Source: a virus. From it: a DNA stretch of 39,865 bases. The notes below the pieces were generated by a model that worked only from the letters and a program-made list of their open reading frames with translations, was not told the origin of the DNA and made no database searches. The stretch spans positions 1 through 39,865 of IMG/VR virus record IMGVR_UViG_3300037247_000607; one strand, written 5' to 3'. Of the stretch, positions 4,885 to 32,962 are shown one piece after another. A program made the position numbers and the translations under genes. How positions within the stretch are numbered: the stretch's first letter is position 1; the number at the start of each line of letters is the position of its first letter.

Positions 4885-5835
4885 ATGACCAACGAAAACC
4901 TACCCGCAGTTGTCGAAAATAAAAAGAATCCCGTGGCGCCGCTCTCGCTTACGGACGTGAAGAACCAGGTCAATCTCATTCAGGAGATTATGCGCCAGGT
5001 GATGAAGAAGGACGAGCATTACGGCATTATACCCGGCACGAAGAAGCCGACACTCTACAAGCCGGGCGCCGAAAAGCTCTGCCTCACGTTTCGGCTGGAT
5101 CCCGAACTCGATGTGTCCCTGACCGCGCTACCGGAGGGCCACCGCGAGTATATGGTGGTCTGTACTATGTATCACATCGACAGCGGGAAGCGGCTGGGGC
5201 AGGGCGTCGGCCTGTGCTCGACGATGGAGACGAAGTACCGCTATCGCGGGGGCGAACCGATACCGACCGGGCAGCCCGTACCCGAAACCTACTGGAAGAA
5301 GCCGAGGGGGAAGCGTGACCAGAACTTGCTCGGGGGCGACGGGTTTCTGCCGTTCAAGGTCAAGAACGCCGATGGCGCCTGGGTGATCGCCCGTAAGGGC
5401 GAGAAGGTCGAGAACCCGGACATCGCGGATACCTATAACACGGTGTTGAAGATGGCGAGCAAGCGGGCAAAGGTTGATGCGGTGCTGACGGTCACGGCCG
5501 CGAGTGACATCTTCACGCAAGACCTTGAGGAAAAAGCATCGAAGCAGGCACCGGCCGAGAAGTCCGAGAAGAAGCGGGCGACAAAGGCGAAGAAGATCAG
5601 GTCGTCAGAGCAGGAGCGCGCGGCGTATGAAGAGGTAATCGAGGTGCTTGGACTCGTGGACACCTCGACGGGGGTCAAGGACTACATGACGAAGAACGAC
5701 GAGAGCCTGAAGAAAGACCTCGGCGACGACCTCTTCGCGGTGCTACGGAAAGAGGCGGGCGCGCTCTACAAGATTCTCTCCGAGAAGGAAGCGGCCGAAG
5801 CGTCCGAAGGGGAGGGGGAGTACAAGACGGAATGA
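4885..5835 (+). CDS. Probable single-strand annealing/recombination protein
   Basis: 316 residues, ATG 4885 behind GGAGG. The block DEHYGIIPGTKKPTLYKPGA followed by EKLCLTFRLDPE and a GQGVGLCSTMETKYRYRGG segment is, as I remember it, conserved in phage proteins lying beside RecB-like nucleases and treated as single-strand annealing or ssDNA-binding proteins. KMASKRAKVDAVLT near residue 195 continues the pattern; the C-terminal third is a Lys/Glu-rich tail. It lies 1.3 kb from the exonuclease gene. The conserved block is clear; annealing activity is inferred. Confidence 0.6.
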   Translation: MTNENLPAVVENKKNPVAPLSLTDVKNQVNLIQEIMRQVMKKDEHYGIIPGTKKPTLYKPGAEKLCLTFRLDPELDVSLTALPEGHREYMVVCTMYHIDSGKRLGQGVGLCSTMETKYRYRGGEPIPTGQPVPETYWKKPRGKRDQNLLGGDGFLPFKVKNADGAWVIARKGEKVENPDIADTYNTVLKMASKRAKVDAVLTVTAASDIFTQDLEEKASKQAPAEKSEKKRATKAKKIRSSEQERAAYEEVIEVLGLVDTSTGVKDYMTKNDESLKKDLGDDLFAVLRKEAGALYKILSEKEAAEASEGEGEYKTE

Positions 5836-22849: not shown

Positions 22850-23251
22850 ATGCCTTGGTACGATTACGAGTGTCCGACTTGCGGGTTTGAGTTTGAGGAA
22901 CAACGGGCGGTTGCCGATTGCCACGGGGCGCGATGTACCGCTTGTGGTTGTGTGGTGAACATTATCATCGGACTCCCGAACGTAATTGTCTACGGGACAT
23001 ACTATGACGTTGGGCTTGACCGAGAAATCACGGGGCCGCGACATCGCCAGGCGCTTATGAAGGCTGCCGGTGTTGAGGAACGTGGCAACATGACCTTGAA
23101 AGAGTGCCAGAGTGAGCAGAAGCGGGTCGAAAACCGCAACATGCCAAAATGCCTACCCGAAGGATTCCTCAAAGTCTACGACCGCGTGACAACACAGAGC
23201 GAGGGTGGCACACTCCCCCCGGGAGGATTTGAAGGTGCCCACGAAGGCTGA
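22850..23251 (+). CDS. FmdB-like zinc-ribbon protein
   Basis: 133 residues. MPWYDYECPTCGFEFEEQRA followed by HGARCTACG is the FmdB/PF09723-type zinc ribbon (YxYxCxxCxxxFE...CPxC). Small FmdB-like ribbons occur in many phage structural regions between terminase and portal, with unknown role. The C-terminal half is unique. Overlaps the portal start by 17 bp. Confidence 0.82.
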   Translation: MPWYDYECPTCGFEFEEQRAVADCHGARCTACGCVVNIIIGLPNVIVYGTYYDVGLDREITGPRHRQALMKAAGVEERGNMTLKECQSEQKRVENRNMPKCLPEGFLKVYDRVTTQSEGGTLPPGGFEGAHEG

Positions 23252-26273: not shown

Positions 26274-26347
26274 CGCACCCGCACGCGCCCTTCCTCCGCG
26301 ATAAAATAGACAATCAACACGACCTCTAAATCGTGGGAGGGACGGGT

Positions 26348-27340
26348 ATGGCTGGACCGAATACCAATTTCGACGAGATGTCGGCCATGATCCATGACTG
26401 GTTTGAGCCGAAGCATCGGGAAATCGTGTTCAACGAGCATCCGATACTTACGGACTTTCACAAGCAGGGATCAAAGCCACGCGGCGGAAACCGCGTCTCG
26501 CAGACACTCACCTATCAATTCACCAAAGACGGCTTCTACACCGACTACGAGCCTGGCAACACGGCGAACGAGGACAAGTTCACCCGTGCCCGGAGCGAGT
26601 GGAAGTTGGCACGGCAGCACTTCACCATTTCGGTGCCCGAACTCATGCGAGCGAGTGGCCCCGAAGAGGTGTTCGACATCCTCGAAAACGGAACCACGGC
26701 CGCCCGACGGGCGATCATGGATTCGGTTGCCGAGGCGATGCTGTTCTACGACAACACCGCAAGCCCGGTTGCGTGGGGCGACTCGGACGAAGCAGTTCAC
26801 AGTATCTCGCGCCTGTTGGGGGACAACACGTACCCGGTAGCGAGTGATACCGTTCTTGAGATTCCGAAGCTGGGCACGTACTGGCGCGGGAATATTGTGG
26901 ATGCTGGCGGGGACGCGCTTGCGGCTGCGGACATCAACAAGCTCTGGTACAAGTGTGTGGATGGCAACTTCCATCTGAACAAGTGGTTGTTCCACAACGA
27001 CCAGGGCGAGAAGGTCGATAACTTGACGGACACGAAGGAACGCTACATTTCGAGTCAGCCGACGCAGATGGCGAAGGATCAATTCGTTATCGTCGGGTTC
27101 CTGAAGGGACAGCCGGTGTTTGTGGATCGCCACATGCCGACCGGCTCGGCGGCGCTCGCGCAGGTCATTGGGCTGCGTAGCGAGGACTTTGACCTGGTTT
27201 CGCACAAGGACCGAAACTTCCGGTTCGAGGGCTTCAAGGAGCCGCACGATCAGGACGTTCGGGTAGGATGGTTCTTCTGGATGGGTGCCCTTATGGTGCG
27301 TGACCCGCGCCGGAGTGGCCTCATCAAGAACTTCATCTAA
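26348..27340 (+). CDS. Major capsid protein
   Basis: 330 residues from ATG 26348 with GGGAGGGA (26335-26342). Position after scaffold, length and motif flow (TLTYQFTKDGFYTDYEPGNT early, NKLWYKCVDGNFHLNKWLFH in the middle, RVGWFFWMGALMVRDPRRSG at the end) fit a podovirus-type HK97-fold capsid subunit. It is followed by a terminator-like hairpin, a common way to make capsid mRNA more abundant than that of downstream genes. Confidence 0.8.
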   Translation: MAGPNTNFDEMSAMIHDWFEPKHREIVFNEHPILTDFHKQGSKPRGGNRVSQTLTYQFTKDGFYTDYEPGNTANEDKFTRARSEWKLARQHFTISVPELMRASGPEEVFDILENGTTAARRAIMDSVAEAMLFYDNTASPVAWGDSDEAVHSISRLLGDNTYPVASDTVLEIPKLGTYWRGNIVDAGGDALAAADINKLWYKCVDGNFHLNKWLFHNDQGEKVDNLTDTKERYISSQPTQMAKDQFVIVGFLKGQPVFVDRHMPTGSAALAQVIGLRSEDFDLVSHKDRNFRFEGFKEPHDQDVRVGWFFWMGALMVRDPRRSGLIKNFI

Positions 27341-27408: not shown

Positions 27409-27888
27409 ATGCAGACAGTTTCAAAACGTCAGTTGACAACCGCGTTCACAACCGAAGCGGACATGCAGCCCGGCAACGTCATTTATGACGAGCGGGGAAG
27501 CAAGTACGCCAAGTGCAAGGCCGCAGCGGCGATTGCAGTCAACGAGACGTGCATGATAGACACGACCGACGCGGTACTCACTCGTGGGTACTACGTCCCA
27601 ACGGTCATCAGGTCGGCGATCATTGCTGACACCCCGAGGGTTATTGGCTTCAACAACACGGGATCCGCGATCACGTCGGGCGACTACTTTTGGGCAAAGA
27701 GTGGCCCGGTTGTAGACGCCCTTGCGGGTGACGTTGCCGCCGTTGTGACCGGAAGCCCGGCTTATTGCTCTGGGACGGACGGGGAGACGGACGACCTCGT
27801 TACGGGTGCCCTCTCGGTGCTCGGGACGTATCTGACCGACGCAGCGGCCACGACCGGAACGACGTGTCAAATCCTGACGCGCCTCTAG
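27409..27888 (+). CDS. Decoration-like protein, tandem paralogue A
   Basis: 159 residues, ATG 27409 behind GGAGG. First of three tandem relatives sharing EAD..PGNVIYDE, SKYAKCKAAAAIA, a GDYFWAK segment and an end rich in small residues. Directly behind the capsid gene, beta-rich and Ala/Gly/Thr-rich, it fits a capsid decoration or spike protein, similar in feel to trimeric head-stabilising proteins. Inference from position and composition. Confidence 0.68.
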   Translation: MQTVSKRQLTTAFTTEADMQPGNVIYDERGSKYAKCKAAAAIAVNETCMIDTTDAVLTRGYYVPTVIRSAIIADTPRVIGFNNTGSAITSGDYFWAKSGPVVDALAGDVAAVVTGSPAYCSGTDGETDDLVTGALSVLGTYLTDAAATTGTTCQILTRL

Positions 27889-28018: not shown

Positions 28019-28486
28019 ATGCGAACTATATCCAACGCACAACTAACGACGAGTTCGGTAAATGAAGCCGACCTGACGCCGGGAAATGTGATCTACGACG
28101 ATTTGTGCCGCAAGTACATCAAGTGCAAAGCCGCGTCGTCGATTGTCACAGACACGGTGACTTATTCCCACGCAACAGCCGCGACAAAAGAAAGGGGCTA
28201 CTTGCTTCCGTGGGCGTTCGCCGGGGTGGCGGGGAAAAGCGACTCGGCAATCGGTTGGAACAAAACCGGCCAAAATATCACGGTCGGACACTTCTTCTGG
28301 TGCATGGTTGGCCCGATTGTGGAGCAAGTTGTTTCCGATGGCGTGATAGTCGTAGGTTCCAGGGTCTATGTCGCAGCTCTTGGGAAGGTATCAGCACTGC
28401 CCGATGGTTTGGAGGGTGCAAACCTCGGGACGGCGCTGACCACAGCTTCGGGGAACCTTGTAGACGTGCTTCGCCGGGACGGATAA
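28019..28486 (+). CDS. Decoration-like protein, tandem paralogue B
   Basis: 155 residues from ATG 28019 (GGAGG 28010-28014); GTG 28016 is too close to the binding site. Same modules as paralogue A: QLTTSSVNEADLTPGNVIYD, YIKCKAASSI, GHFFWCMVGP. Ends DVLRRDG, and a DNA remnant of this end is found after paralogue C. Diverged from A mainly in the middle. Probably a surface protein of the head. Confidence 0.67.
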   Translation: MRTISNAQLTTSSVNEADLTPGNVIYDDLCRKYIKCKAASSIVTDTVTYSHATAATKERGYLLPWAFAGVAGKSDSAIGWNKTGQNITVGHFFWCMVGPIVEQVVSDGVIVVGSRVYVAALGKVSALPDGLEGANLGTALTTASGNLVDVLRRDG

Positions 28487-28533: not shown

Positions 28534-29016
28534 ATGAGCGTTCAAACATTATCATCGACGGAATTGGCGGTAGAATCTGACACGGAAGCGGACCTGAGAC
28601 TAGGGAACGTTGCCTATGACAACGAGGAAAGCAAGTGGGTTAAATGCAAGGCGGCAGCGGCGATTGCGCTGGGCGAAGTCGTGATTCCTGATGCGACCGC
28701 CGCGGTGCTTAATCGCACGTTCTACGTCCCAACGGTCGTGAAGTGTACGGGGATCGTCAAGACGGCGGCGATTATTGGTGTCGCTGTCACGGCAATAGAC
28801 AGCGGCGACTACTTTTGGGCGAAGGTCGGCCCGTACATTCTCTGTCTCGCGGGAACAACCGGGTCGGTCGCAACCGGGATACTTGTGTATGCTTCGGCAA
28901 CGGCAGGCGAAGTAGACGACACAGTAACAGGGGTCGAAGCGGGCGTCTTTGGTGTTTCCGTAACGGCATCGGGCGTGCCCGCCGCTGGACAGATTATCGT
29001 CCTGCGGCCAGTTTGA
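28534..29016 (+). CDS. Decoration-like protein, tandem paralogue C
   Basis: 160 residues from ATG 28534 (GGAGGAA upstream). Modules as in A and B: ESDTEADLRLGNVAYDNEES, KWVKCKAAAAIALGE, SGDYFWAKVGP. Ends IIVLRPV, after which the non-coding DNA still resembles the DVLRRDG end of paralogue B, so this copy has a new stop. Role as for A. Confidence 0.68.
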   Translation: MSVQTLSSTELAVESDTEADLRLGNVAYDNEESKWVKCKAAAAIALGEVVIPDATAAVLNRTFYVPTVVKCTGIVKTAAIIGVAVTAIDSGDYFWAKVGPYILCLAGTTGSVATGILVYASATAGEVDDTVTGVEAGVFGVSVTASGVPAAGQIIVLRPV

Positions 29017-29366: not shown

Positions 29367-30338
29367 GTGCTCTACCTTGTGAAAATGGTCGGGAACGTTG
29401 CGGTCGGCAGCGGCTGGTTCGGTGTCAGGACGGGAGCCCCGAATTGGGCTCAGTGGGATGAGGGTATCCTAACGTCCGATGCGAACTATTGCGGCACGAG
29501 AAGCGCGCCGAAAACCGAAACACAAAAGTTTCAGAAGCAACTAATATCAGGAGCCACGAACCTCCCGACCGATCTTGTTCGGGTGGTCGAGTTGCAAACC
29601 AAACTCCTGTACCGGGCGACGGACTTCATACTCATTGGTGGGGATGCCGACGCCGCCATTCGGACACGTTTCAAGATCAACGGATCGTTTCTCACTCCTT
29701 GGCCCAATCAGCAAGAAGTGATGGTAGACGACAACGTAGAACGGGTGTTGACGTGGCCGAAATACACCGGACTGGACTTCACCAAAGCCGAAGCCGAGGT
29801 GATGGAAACTCAGTGGCAAACGCTGGCGATGGGAAGTTGGGACGAGGGCGTGACGACGCTATACGCGGTTGCCGCCGAAGCGTGGGTTTACTACGTCAAG
29901 ATTCCGACGATCACGGCAGTGTCCCCAGACAACGGGACGGTGGACGGCGGAGATACCGTCACGATTACGGGCGAAGGTTTTCTGGACGCCAACCCAGGGA
30001 CGCCGGACGTGAAGTTCGACGGCGTGTCCGGCACGAATCCGAACGTCACAAGCGACGGGTCCATGACCATCGACACCCCGGCTCACGTCGCAGGCGCCGT
30101 CGATGTCACCGTGGACACCAACTACGGCACATCGTTGGCGCTGTCAGGCGGGTATCTTTATAGAGACTTCGACAAGACGATGGATGCCGCCACCGGAACC
30201 GAGAAAATCATTGCAGCTGCCACAGGAACAGAAAAGACGACTGCGACTGCTACGGGGACAGAAAAGGCGATCGCTTCGGCTACGGGTACTGAAAAAACTA
30301 TTGCAGCGTCTACAGGCACGGAGAAGGTGATTCCATGA
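29367..30338 (+). CDS. Ig-like (IPT/TIG) surface protein with five C-terminal 10-residue repeats
   Basis: 323 residues from GTG 29367 with GGAGGA upstream. Residues 1-178 form a unique domain; 180-265 read as an IPT/TIG Ig-like domain (PTITAVSPDNGTVDGGDTVT, ITGEGF, then VDVTVDT). Residues 271-320 are five tandem copies of a decapeptide of type xxxATGTEKx. Ig-like domains decorate phage heads and tails and bind cell-surface sugars weakly. Beside decoration paralogues and the adaptor, it may be a head fibre or neck appendage. Function inferred. Confidence 0.75.
   Translation: MLYLVKMVGNVAVGSGWFGVRTGAPNWAQWDEGILTSDANYCGTRSAPKTETQKFQKQLISGATNLPTDLVRVVELQTKLLYRATDFILIGGDADAAIRTRFKINGSFLTPWPNQQEVMVDDNVERVLTWPKYTGLDFTKAEAEVMETQWQTLAMGSWDEGVTTLYAVAAEAWVYYVKIPTITAVSPDNGTVDGGDTVTITGEGFLDANPGTPDVKFDGVSGTNPNVTSDGSMTIDTPAHVAGAVDVTVDTNYGTSLALSGGYLYRDFDKTMDAATGTEKIIAAATGTEKTTATATGTEKAIASATGTEKTIAASTGTEKVIP
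30177..30326 (+). repeat. Five in-frame 30-bp repeats encoding ATGTEK decapeptides
   Basis: Residues 271-320 of the TIG protein: five 10-residue units, all with TGTEK. The DNA units differ at many third-codon positions (GGA ACC GAG, GGA ACA GAA, GGG ACA GAA, GGT ACT GAA, GGC ACG GAG), so the peptide and not the DNA is conserved. Confidence 0.95.
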
Positions 30339-31021
30339 TACGCTCTGAGTTTCAAGATTTCATCCGCGTGCTTCTCGCCGAGAAGTCCGGCAACTCGGCT
30401 ATTACAGACCCGAACATTGATGACATGATAAACAGCGTCATGCCGTTTGTTTCCATAGCCGCGAAGCTGTTGACGTTCCGAACGATCGACACGGTTGTCG
30501 GCACAGACAGGTATTCGCTGCCGAGTGACTTTCTCAAGATGCAGAACGTCTACCTGCAGGTGGATGCGAACCGGCGCGAGAAGCTGATCTACCGAAGCCG
30601 TGACCAGTTCGAGGCGCTTTCTTTCGGGGCCTCTGCCCAGCAGGCCGAGCCGGAATACTATACGATCGAGTTGGGGCGCACCTCAAACACCGACGACACG
30701 CAGCCACCAGGCGACATCGGGCTCTATCCGGTGCCGAACACCGTAATAACCGATGGCATTGTGATCCGTTATTTTCAGCGGTGCGATGATATGTCGGCCG
30801 ACACTGAGTCCCCCGAACTTTTTGTTCACGCCCATACGGCGCTTGCCTATCGGGTGGCGATGAACCTCGCGTTCAAACTCAAAGACCGGGCGCTTGCAGC
30901 CGACCTGAACGCGCTCTATGAGCAGGAAATATTAGAACACAAGAAGCTCATGGCGTCCGATCAAGACGACGGGCCATTCTCGACGATTGATGTGATGGGG
31001 TACAGCGATTACCAGTGGTAA
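30335..31021 (+). CDS. Head-tail adaptor protein
   Basis: 228 residues, ATGA overlap with the previous gene. Helical with an RYSLPSDFLKMQNVYLQVD core, a TIELGRTSNTDDTQPPGDIG loop and a long C-terminal helix (ALAADLNALYEQEILEHKKL). This fits the phage adaptor/gp4- or gp6-like proteins that sit below the portal. The position directly before the gp10-like hub supports it. Family assignment by pattern and context. Confidence 0.72.
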   Translation: MIRSEFQDFIRVLLAEKSGNSAITDPNIDDMINSVMPFVSIAAKLLTFRTIDTVVGTDRYSLPSDFLKMQNVYLQVDANRREKLIYRSRDQFEALSFGASAQQAEPEYYTIELGRTSNTDDTQPPGDIGLYPVPNTVITDGIVIRYFQRCDDMSADTESPELFVHAHTALAYRVAMNLAFKLKDRALAADLNALYEQEILEHKKLMASDQDDGPFSTIDVMGYSDYQW

Positions 31022-31024
31022 ATA

Positions 31025-32962
31025 ATGGCTGACGCGAAGCAACAGACATATTCGGTGCGTGGCTGGCCGCTGGGATTAAACTCGTTCTCTCCAACTTTCA
31101 AGGTACAGCCTAACGAATTGGCCGTCCTCAAGAATCTTCGGGTCGAACAGGGCGGCTACCTCGTTCCGCGTAAGGGCTTCTCGAAATACGAGACGACATG
31201 GCCGGGTGGTGCGGTTAAGGGTGCGTATCGTCACGAAGAGACGGACGGCAACAAACAGGTGATTGCGGCGTCGGGGTCGGCGCCGGCCACGATTTACAGT
31301 GACGAGGGAGGCGGCACCTTTGCGAGCCGGACGACTCTCACCGAGTCGGCAGACGGATACCTACGATTCGCACAGTGGCGCGACACGATTTTCTGCATGT
31401 CGGACGCGGCTGATATAAAGGTATATCACAGGGGTGCGACCCCGGAGATACGCACCTCGGATATTTCTCATCCAGACCTAAATGCCATTGACAGTAACGC
31501 GCCGATTTCGGGCGGCAACCTTGAGGAATTAAAAACGTACACCTATCGCTGTACCGTTGACTTTGAGTTGGATGGAGATTTCCTTTCTGAGTCGGTGCCA
31601 CTTATCCTGTCGGGAGTTTCCTTTAATCAGGCGGAAGAAACCACAACGGCAACCAATAAACAAATTGAGATTAAGAAGGGGGCCGACAACCTCACTTCCG
31701 ACACGGTACAGATTAACATTTACCGCACCGAGGCGACCGACAGCGGGGTTATTTCCACGAGTAAAGACCCTGCGTTTTGGTTCCTGACCTCAATCACCAC
31801 TGCCGTGTTCAATGTTGCGAGTGTGGGTGATGTGCTGTTCACTGACGACGGGAACACGCCGCTTACGTTTGGAAGGCGAACCTCGAATATACCCGCTCAG
31901 ATATTCTACGGTGGATTCGATAAGCCGCCACGGTGCCGCTTTGCCGCGACCCACAAGAACCGTATGTGGTCGGCACGAACAACCGCAGACCCGCACTACC
32001 TGTATTTCTCGGAATACCTTGAGCCGGAAAGGGTGCGCGAGACGAGCTTCCTTCCGATTGGCTACGGTGGAAACAGGGAAGGCGGCGGGCCGATCACGGT
32101 CATTGCGTCCCTGATGAACCGCGAGTTGGTAGTCGCAAAGGCGAACGCACTCTGGCGCGTAGCCGGTGGCGATAACGAAACACTTCCCGGCGTACCGGAT
32201 TTCGAGATTGAGATGATTACCCCCGCCGTTGGGTGTATTGCCCCGGAGACGATGATTGTTGCCGAGGGGGCGTTGATGTGGCTCTCTCATCGAGGGGTCT
32301 ACGTCTATGACGGTACGGTGCCGAAAGAGATTCGCACGCATGAAATCAGGAACATCCTCGAAGGCTTCACGGCCGCGCAGAAGAATGTTGCTTGCGCGAC
32401 CTATTATCCGAAGCGCCGGGAATATTGGCTTGCGATCGACACCACCGTATTGATTTACAGCTTTATTACCGATGCGTGGTCGGAGCACGAGTACAAGGAC
32501 GGAGGGACGGCGGTTGTTTATAATCATTTGCTTATGATTCAGGAAGGGGATGCGATCCCCGATATTCTCGGGTGTACAGACGCGGCTACCGCCGCCGACT
32601 TTCACCTGATGGACAGCGCGGACAGCGACAACGGGGCGAACATAGATTGGACGGCAACGACGGGAGCCCTTGATTTCAATCATCCCGACCAGGTAAAGAA
32701 ACTTGCGGCGATCATCGTGCTTCTCGAAACGACGGTGACGGTATCGGCAACTTTCATTCTCGACGGGGGAGTTTCTTCTTCTAGTCTTGGGAGTATCACT
32801 ACGCTCGCGTGGCAGCAGCGCAAGGCGTTCAAGATGGAACTTGAACGCATGAGTCACGTTGCAATACAAATGACCGGGAGTTCGGCGGCGACGGGGATCA
32901 GCATACAGGGAATTGAATTTAAGTACATAATCGAGGAAAGTATTCTCGTGGGGGACGACTAA
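31025..32962 (+). CDS. Tail hub / stabilisation protein, P22 gp10-like
   Basis: 645 residues, beta-rich. VLKNLRVEQGGYLVPRKGFS at the N-terminus, HKNRMWSARTTADPHYLYFS in the middle and GCIAPETMIVAEGALMWLSH, then RGVYVYDG, recur in P22 gp10-type tail accessory proteins that plug the portal-adaptor channel and carry the fibres. Blade-like repeated strands suggest a propeller-type body. The last 100 residues are variable. Supports podovirus morphology. Confidence 0.78.
   Translation: MADAKQQTYSVRGWPLGLNSFSPTFKVQPNELAVLKNLRVEQGGYLVPRKGFSKYETTWPGGAVKGAYRHEETDGNKQVIAASGSAPATIYSDEGGGTFASRTTLTESADGYLRFAQWRDTIFCMSDAADIKVYHRGATPEIRTSDISHPDLNAIDSNAPISGGNLEELKTYTYRCTVDFELDGDFLSESVPLILSGVSFNQAEETTTATNKQIEIKKGADNLTSDTVQINIYRTEATDSGVISTSKDPAFWFLTSITTAVFNVASVGDVLFTDDGNTPLTFGRRTSNIPAQIFYGGFDKPPRCRFAATHKNRMWSARTTADPHYLYFSEYLEPERVRETSFLPIGYGGNREGGGPITVIASLMNRELVVAKANALWRVAGGDNETLPGVPDFEIEMITPAVGCIAPETMIVAEGALMWLSHRGVYVYDGTVPKEIRTHEIRNILEGFTAAQKNVACATYYPKRREYWLAIDTTVLIYSFITDAWSEHEYKDGGTAVVYNHLLMIQEGDAIPDILGCTDAATAADFHLMDSADSDNGANIDWTATTGALDFNHPDQVKKLAAIIVLLETTVTVSATFILDGGVSSSSLGSITTLAWQQRKAFKMELERMSHVAIQMTGSSAATGISIQGIEFKYIIEESILVGDD

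What the first reader, a model, noticed from the sequence alone, without database searches (positions are those of the whole stretch)
30177..30326. Perfectly periodic ATGTEK tail on a TIG-domain virion protein
Five uninterrupted decapeptides end the protein. The DNA copies differ at synonymous sites, so the peptide repeat is under selection and is not a recent slippage product. Thr/Glu/Lys repeats may form an extended stalk or beta-solenoid, act as a glycosylation-like target, or vary in number between strains as a length ruler.
Basis: partly seen in the sequence, partly recalled or inferred. Interest (0 to 1): 0.55.

Follow-up and report, generated by a model that had tools for sequence, protein, structure and literature searches.

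The report
Repeat-tailed Ig-domain phage surface protein
A short-tailed phage carries a likely surface protein ending in five well-kept copies of a ten-residue motif, probably a short stalk or tip; ten-residue arrays of other sequence are already familiar in phage tail fibres, so this is a variant of an ordinary theme.

Summary
Window 30177-30326 encodes five in-frame decapeptides, four with ATGTEK and one with STGTEK, before a final VIP and stop. The period-10 signal (30 of 45) exceeds the best of 20,000 shuffles (19). The TGTEK codons differ only at third positions, so the array is old and its peptide is kept: not recent slippage.

The carrier has 323 residues: an orphan N-terminal part, a confident TIG domain, then the tail. 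It lies directly upstream of an SU10-type adaptor gene, where SU10 and phiEco32 also have an Ig-domain gene, of another Ig family. No relative of the N-terminal part or tail was found, so conservation and copy number across strains are untested. A podovirus with a related capsid protein has a fibre-like protein with a different decapeptide array.

Best reading: a capsid- or neck-bound Ig-type appendage whose tail is flexible alone and may order on oligomerisation into a short shaft or tip. "Virion" is inferred from position. Glycosylation and length-ruler ideas found no support. Moderate to low interest.

The parts
29367..30338 (+). Gene of the 323-residue TIG-domain protein that carries the repeat (GTG start, stop included)
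   Evidence: ORF; Shine-Dalgarno-like GGAGG upstream, duplex energy -9.5 kcal/mol against a background mean of -3.7; stop overlaps the ATG of the next gene
29367..29891 (+). N-terminal part, about residues 1-175, no assignable family
   Evidence: No Pfam at E<=10, no PDB at E<=10, no phage tblastn at E<=10; weak PHROG rows only (best E 0.047); 4 of 991 genomes gave a hit, all at E 5-6e-3 and all with stop codons inside, read as chance
29904..30125 (+). TIG/IPT domain, residues 180-253
   Evidence: PF01833 E 9.8e-13 above cut-off; model pLDDT block means 77-93; PDB matches led by EBF IPT/TIG domains, E about 1e-5
30177..30326 (+). Five decapeptide repeats, consensus x-[I/M/T]-[A/D]-[A/T/S]-[A/S]-T-G-T-E-K
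30327..30338 (+). Final VIP and stop; TGA overlaps the ATG of the adaptor gene
30320..30327 (+). Possible ribosome-binding site of the adaptor gene (GGAGAAGG) over the last repeat's Glu-Lys codons
   Evidence: Duplex with a recalled anti-SD sequence -8.0 kcal/mol; 2.8% of 3,000 random synonymous encodings do as well; suggestive only
30335..31021 (+). SU10-type adaptor gene (context)
   Evidence: PF24175 E 7e-17, 62.9 bits against cut-off 27
31025..32962 (+). Nozzle / head-closure-like gene (context)
   Evidence: phrog_3287 E 2e-18, phrog_578 head closure Hc3 E 4.6e-11; blastp to SU10 gp17 nozzle over 68 columns, E 1.4e-4 in a set of 7 sequences
26333..27340 (+). Major capsid gene (context)
   Evidence: NF033394 capsid_maj_Podo E 9e-33, 113.8 bits against cut-off 80; phrog_9953 E 9.8e-17

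Best explanation
The gene encodes an Ig-type (TIG) surface protein of a short-tailed phage, probably a capsid-decoration or neck/fibre protein. Its N-terminal part would hold the virion, the TIG domain stands outside, and the C-terminal 50-residue decapeptide array is a Thr/Ala/Gly-rich distal segment. On its own the segment is probably flexible; in the virion it may order on oligomerisation into a short beta-type shaft or tip that presents or spaces a binding surface. Shown: the repeat, the TIG domain, the gene order, the kept TGTEK peptide with saturated synonymous sites. Inferred: virion location, which end binds the particle, oligomerisation, and a role in adhesion.
For: TIG domain by profile and fold. 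Gene order TerL, portal, capsid, cement-like genes, TIG gene, adaptor, nozzle-like gene. SU10 and phiEco32 carry an Ig-domain gene directly before the adaptor gene (both next genes match PF24175); the SU10 paper says its gp10 has a predicted Ig-like fold similar to the epsilon15 minor capsid protein and the phi29 head-fibre N-terminal domain (PMC9509320, passages). Core codons keep TGTEK with changes only at third positions. The tail is not confidently ordered as a monomer. [quoted passage not shown] PMC7602432, passages). A decapeptide array of another motif lies in a protein of a podovirus with a related capsid protein; 6 of the 9 PHROG families that match it are named tail fiber protein, one of them over the array.
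Against: SU10 gp10 is Big_2-like, not TIG, shows no sequence similarity, was not seen in the SU10 cryo-EM head, and has a terminator between it and the adaptor gene. Two capsid relatives, Mx9 and MW202803, have no such protein between capsid and adaptor genes: six interval proteins gave no TIG or Ig match in Pfam and no similarity in blastp or phmmer. The repeat motif is not alike to the known fibre decapeptides (column-permutation P 0.61 and 0.59). No confident structure for the N-terminal part or the tail. Mean hydropathy puts the tail on the folded side of the Uversky line (0.473 against 0.420), against simple disorder. No relatives, so no comparative test. No data on virion content.
Confidence: 0.4

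Rival explanations
1. The tail is a flexible, permanently disordered linker or entropic brush with no fold; only its length and hydrophilic character matter.
For: Block-mean pLDDT 39-54 and nearly all coil in the model; T/A/G/E/K composition with near-zero net charge. The nearest array in letters that I saw, NGTEKAAAAT in a Solirubrobacteraceae protein (L039), sits in an Ala-rich stretch of a protein without a TIG match.
Against: TGTEK is invariant in all five copies while synonymous sites are saturated; a pure linker should tolerate amino-acid change. Hydropathy is on the folded side of the Uversky line. Low pLDDT with an alignment that holds no other sequence for the tail says little.
Confidence: 0.3
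2. The tail is the binding tip: five copies of a short peptide give avidity for a host surface ligand.
For: Repeated identical short motif at the C-terminal end of an Ig-type protein; Ig-like decoration proteins such as Hoc, pb10 and gp17 are thought to mediate host cell adhesion (PMC7602432, passages).
Against: No Pfam family or solved protein matched the tail better than chance; no host known; in fibres the shaft, not the tip, is usually the repeat (recalled).
Confidence: 0.15
3. Old expansion kept by drift and by its overlap with the next gene's translation signals; the last copy carries the adaptor gene's ribosome-binding site, the other copies are dispensable.
For: Stop and start overlap; GGAGAAGG over the last copy's end, better than 97% of synonymous encodings.
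Against: Explains one copy only; the four other copies keep TGTEK with zero first- or second-position changes.
Confidence: 0.1
4. The protein is part of the tail (long-fibre or tail-appendage protein docked on the adaptor) rather than a head decoration. This overlaps with the best explanation, which leaves head or neck open.
For: Gene adjacent to the adaptor; in SU10 the adaptor is the attachment site of long tail fibres. In a TM7 phage with an adaptor relative, genes shortly before it are annotated pectate-lyase and tail-fibre proteins, with a 71-residue hypothetical gene in between.
Against: 323 residues is short for a fibre (recalled); in SU10 the fibre genes follow the adaptor while the Ig gene precedes it; three cement-like genes lie just upstream in the window.
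Confidence: 0.3

Closest known systems
SU10 gp10 / phiEco32 gp12 (Ig-domain gene before the adaptor)
   Same: Ig-type domain; gene lies between the capsid and adaptor genes, directly upstream of the adaptor
   Different: Big_2-like rather than TIG; 132 and 170 aa; no decapeptide tail in the printed sequences; no sequence similarity of gp10 or gp12 to the window protein
Phage L Dec decoration protein
   Same: Globular domain followed by a C-terminal tail; Dec's is disordered alone (PMC6449081, passages), the window's has no confident monomer structure
   Different: Dec has an OB-fold; its sequence was not compared here; order on oligomerisation is not shown for the window protein
   Same: Tandem units of ten residues; PHROG tail-fibre matches for UOF82176
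   Different: Motif of the VTTAKIADLA kind, not ATGTEK; permutation test shows no motif similarity (P 0.59-0.61); arrays are internal, not C-terminal
Phage TIG/IPT proteins (e.g. BFVD A0A6J5L8Z0; L094)
   Same: TIG domain by fold or sequence; in L094 the TIG domain ends the protein
   Different: No decapeptide tail in L094 or L095; the BFVD matches were seen as table rows only

Membership tests
IPT/TIG domain (PF01833) | Profile match above curated cut-off | tested here: met
   48.4 bits against 20.9
IPT/TIG domain (PF01833) | TIG-type Ig fold | tested here: met
   Model region pLDDT block means 77-93; top PDB matches EBF1/EBF3 IPT/TIG domains, E about 1e-5
SU10 gp10-type head Ig protein | Gene between capsid and adaptor genes, directly before the adaptor | tested here: met
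SU10 gp10-type head Ig protein | Sequence homology with gp10 | tested here: not met
   No blastp or phmmer match at E<=1 to gp10 or phiEco32 gp12; gp10 is Big_2-like, 16.4 bits, below the cut-off of 22.8
Virion protein | Presence in particles | not testable with these tools
   Inferred from gene order only
Dec-like decoration protein with conditional trimeric beta-helix tail | OB-fold body | tested here: inconclusive
   No OB-fold family matched; a TIG domain did; the N-terminal part has no assignment, so its fold is unknown
Dec-like decoration protein with conditional trimeric beta-helix tail | Tail unfolded in monomer, beta-helix in trimer | tested here: inconclusive
   Monomer model: tail block means 39-54; no multimer prediction was available
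Phage-fibre decapeptide array (VTTAKIADLA kind) | Period of ten residues | tested here: met
   30 of 45 at lag 10
Phage-fibre decapeptide array (VTTAKIADLA kind) | Shared motif | tested here: not met
   Column-permuted controls score as high, P 0.61 (3,000 permutations) and 0.59 (5,000)

The most novel reading that the evidence does not exclude
The ATGTEK decapeptide is a separate oligomeric shaft module, unlike known fibre repeats, built on an Ig-type neck or head protein; its peptide is under purifying selection while the DNA copies have diverged too far to recombine easily, which would hold the copy number steady.
Probability: 0.12. Interest if true: 0.45.

Novelty: new variant of a known kind. 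Interest (0 to 1): 0.25.

Why it matters
If the tail orders on assembly, it would be a very short, regular shaft with only ten residues per unit, useful for seeing how phages build spacers on Ig-type surface proteins. If not, it is a conserved Thr/Ala-rich tail on an otherwise ordinary decoration protein. Either way it shows an Ig-type gene in the pre-adaptor slot of another, very divergent podovirus-like genome.

Tried and rejected
Relatives. The search for related loci on viral contigs with the whole protein (17 pattern stretches), adaptor (5), capsid protein (2), TerL (44) and an alignment of the three cement-like proteins (77) confirmed none. The TIG domain alone gave 2 relatives out of 58 stretches; beyond the TIG domain I saw no likeness. 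tblastn in phages gave one weak TIG hit for the whole protein (E 0.4) and none for the N-terminal part or the tail at E<=10; BLAST's low-complexity filter may have masked the tail. Plasmids: none at E<=0.01. N-terminal part in 398, 297 and 296 genomes: 1, 1 and 2 genomes with a hit at E 5-6e-3, all with stops inside, read as chance. Whole protein in 10 genomes: six TIG-type hits in one of them.

Repeat pattern. TGTEK twice at period ten: 0 stretches in viral contigs. Relaxed GT[ED]K twice at period ten: 26 viral stretches; relaxed G[TS][ED]K three times: 51 genome stretches. I read the matched frame of all 77 in one script and classed the matched segment: of the 51, 37 are five-residue arrays (such as GTDKA) and 14 ten-residue arrays; of the 26, 8 are five-residue arrays and 18 others rest on two matching places only. 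TGTEK itself occurs in one matched segment, L076, a five-residue TGTEK array. None shows an ATGTEK decapeptide array. Of these 77 only L039 was run against Pfam.

phrog_22415 matched the tail at E 0.0015. Followed up in the own record (E 1.7e-4, while 2 of 14 control genomes also rang at the lax limit of E<=10), 34 records (0 matches) and 398, 249 and 276 genomes (4, 1 and 1 genomes). One search printed the matched frame only for L110 and L111. One search showed the match region of all six on both strands: unlike repeats (GKSVEELI-type in L106, VQATTAKPEL-type in L108, an antisense frame with stops in L109, VTTAKIADLA-type in L110, a helical-looking Ala/Glu-rich stretch in L111; L107 could not be placed for certain). 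I read this as a profile that attracts repetitive sequence, not a family link; its members were not seen, so this stays partly open.

Structure. Whole-protein AlphaFold from one sequence was useless (pLDDT 30). TIG plus tail with a 3-row alignment worked for the TIG domain only. Tail against PDB sequences: two chance GAPDH matches, E about 8. Register-specific codon diversification was considered and rejected: within-tail permutation P 0.46.

Literature. 'TGTEK' anywhere: 5 papers, unrelated by title and abstract start. 'decapeptide repeat' with phage and structural protein: 1, unrelated by title. 'TIG domain' with phage, tail fiber and repeat: 0. 'TTAKIAD': 0. Searches were read as listings; passages only were read from PMC9509320, PMC7602432, PMC6449081.

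Full report
Observation. The sequence at 30177-30326 encodes five decapeptides in frame near the end of the ORF 29367-30338: TMDAATGTEK, IIAAATGTEK, TTATATGTEK, AIASATGTEK, TIAASTGTEK. Then VIP and a stop follow. Self-identity at lag 10 is 30 of 45; the best of 20,000 shuffles of the same residues over lags 3-20 is 19. The coordinates are exact; "five ATGTEK copies that end the protein" needs the two small corrections that one copy is STGTEK and that VIP follows.

Age and constraint. Pairs of copies share 18-22 of 30 bases and the same codon at 17 of 71 same-residue positions. In the TGTEK codons at least 10 third-position changes, and no first- or second-position change, are needed; in the other five codons at least 9 third-position and 7 first- or second-position changes. 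This fits an old array under purifying selection on TGTEK. Codon identity is lower than the structural genes' codon usage predicts (P 0.003-0.005 over the core and over all positions, 0.011 in the subset of positions 3-8); against uniform usage P is 0.03, 0.05 and 0.08. Permuting codons within the tail gives the same value (P 0.46), so the effect is an even codon set, not avoidance between matching positions. As a yardstick, the three pairs of cement-like paralogs have codon identity 0.41, 0.56 and 0.31 at shared residues, against 0.36-0.37 expected; one pair is thus clearly not saturated. With at most 9 identical bases in register, present-day slippage should be rare (inference).

The protein. 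Residues 180-253 are a TIG domain. With two TIG relatives as alignment the domain folds well, pLDDT block means 77-93, and Foldseek's best solved matches are EBF IPT/TIG domains. The ten viral matches at E<=0.001 are mostly IPT/TIG proteins, with one named tail fiber protein; a major tail protein follows at E 1.3e-3. Residues 1-180 match nothing in Pfam, PDB or phage tblastn at E<=10, and only weak PHROG rows. My impression that this part looks like a beta-sandwich or jelly-roll domain of phage appendages is recalled pattern sense, not a test. The tail has no confident structure in the monomer model (block means 39-54 from residue 275 on); that model had no other sequences for the tail, so this is weak evidence.

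Setting. The window is a virus record with TerL, portal, capsid protein (NF033394, above cut-off), three cement-like genes, a 101-residue gene, the TIG gene, an SU10-type adaptor and a nozzle- or head-closure-like gene in that order. It is very divergent: megablast of 13 kb against phages finds nothing, and tblastn finds capsid relatives in 2 phage records, both at 23% identity. SU10 and phiEco32 place an Ig-domain gene directly before the adaptor (PF24175 in both next genes). The SU10 authors relate gp10 to the epsilon15 minor capsid protein and the phi29 head-fibre base but saw no density for it (PMC9509320, passages); its PHROG rows include a Hoc-like head decoration family at E 0.01. The window protein has the same place but another Ig family and no sequence similarity, so I treat this as a positional parallel only. 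The two capsid relatives lack such a protein in that interval, which shows the slot is not always used this way.

Repeats of this period elsewhere. One capsid relative, MW202803, encodes just after its stabilisation-protein gene a 322-residue protein with a VTTAKIADLA-kind decapeptide array; of 9 PHROG families that match it 6 are named tail fiber protein, and phrog_21412 matches over residues 77-165, the array itself. A 1,793-residue frame in a genome of the phylum of [Clostridium] asparagiforme has a similar array after an fn3 match below cut-off. A solved protein, 9eg4_H 'orf16', matches the array of MW202803 at E 0.031 but not when the whole protein is the query. So period-ten arrays are a familiar build in phage fibre-like proteins. 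The ATGTEK motif itself is not alike to them: column-permuted versions of the tail score as high (P 0.61 and 0.59). In nine comparison loci (L079-L083, L094-L097) an array at 40% identity or more over 55 residues occurred in 5 of 396 stop-to-stop frames of 100 residues or more; two are annotated genes (in L080 and L082), the other three lie on the minus strand.

Mechanism. I think the protein is an Ig-type surface appendage and that the tail is its distal segment, possibly ordering on oligomerisation. [quoted passage not shown] Each step beyond sequence, TIG domain and gene order is inference. A permanently disordered linker is nearly as likely; the strict TGTEK conservation and the hydropathy argue against it, the model neither way.

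A side feature. The last copy's Glu-Lys codons lie in GGAGAAGG upstream of the adaptor ATG; only 2.8% of 3,000 random synonymous encodings pair as well with the anti-Shine-Dalgarno. The overlap may add constraint to that copy alone.

Limits. The host is unknown.

Noticed in passing
27409-27888, 28019-28486, 28534-29016: Three tandem cement-like paralogs, the first two 47% and 35% identical to the third; only weak cement or virion-protein profile matches, and only for the third. Triplication next to the capsid gene is unusual to my knowledge.
   Followed up: partly
30320-30337: Adaptor ribosome-binding site apparently written into the last repeat copy, upstream of the adaptor ATG.
   Followed up: partly
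22850-23251: Small FmdB-like protein between TerL and portal genes (phrog_1076, E 2.5e-4); its ORF overlaps the listed start of the portal ORF.
   Followed up: no
L080:10241-11209: MW202803 protein, annotated hypothetical, with a VTTAKIADLA-kind decapeptide array and tail-fibre PHROG matches.
   Followed up: partly
L082:4916-6433: Protein annotated 'glycoprotein repeat domain-containing' with an LPAGTNNIGDVDVLTLP array of period 18, between the capsid and stabilisation-protein genes.
   Followed up: no
30158-30355, minus strand: The strand opposite the repeat is also open and reads FSVPVA decapeptides; probably a by-product of the repeat.
   Followed up: no
4885-5835: Protein matching phrog_10048 (E 3.6e-59, unknown function), with matches in 15 phage records of very different hosts.
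   Followed up: no
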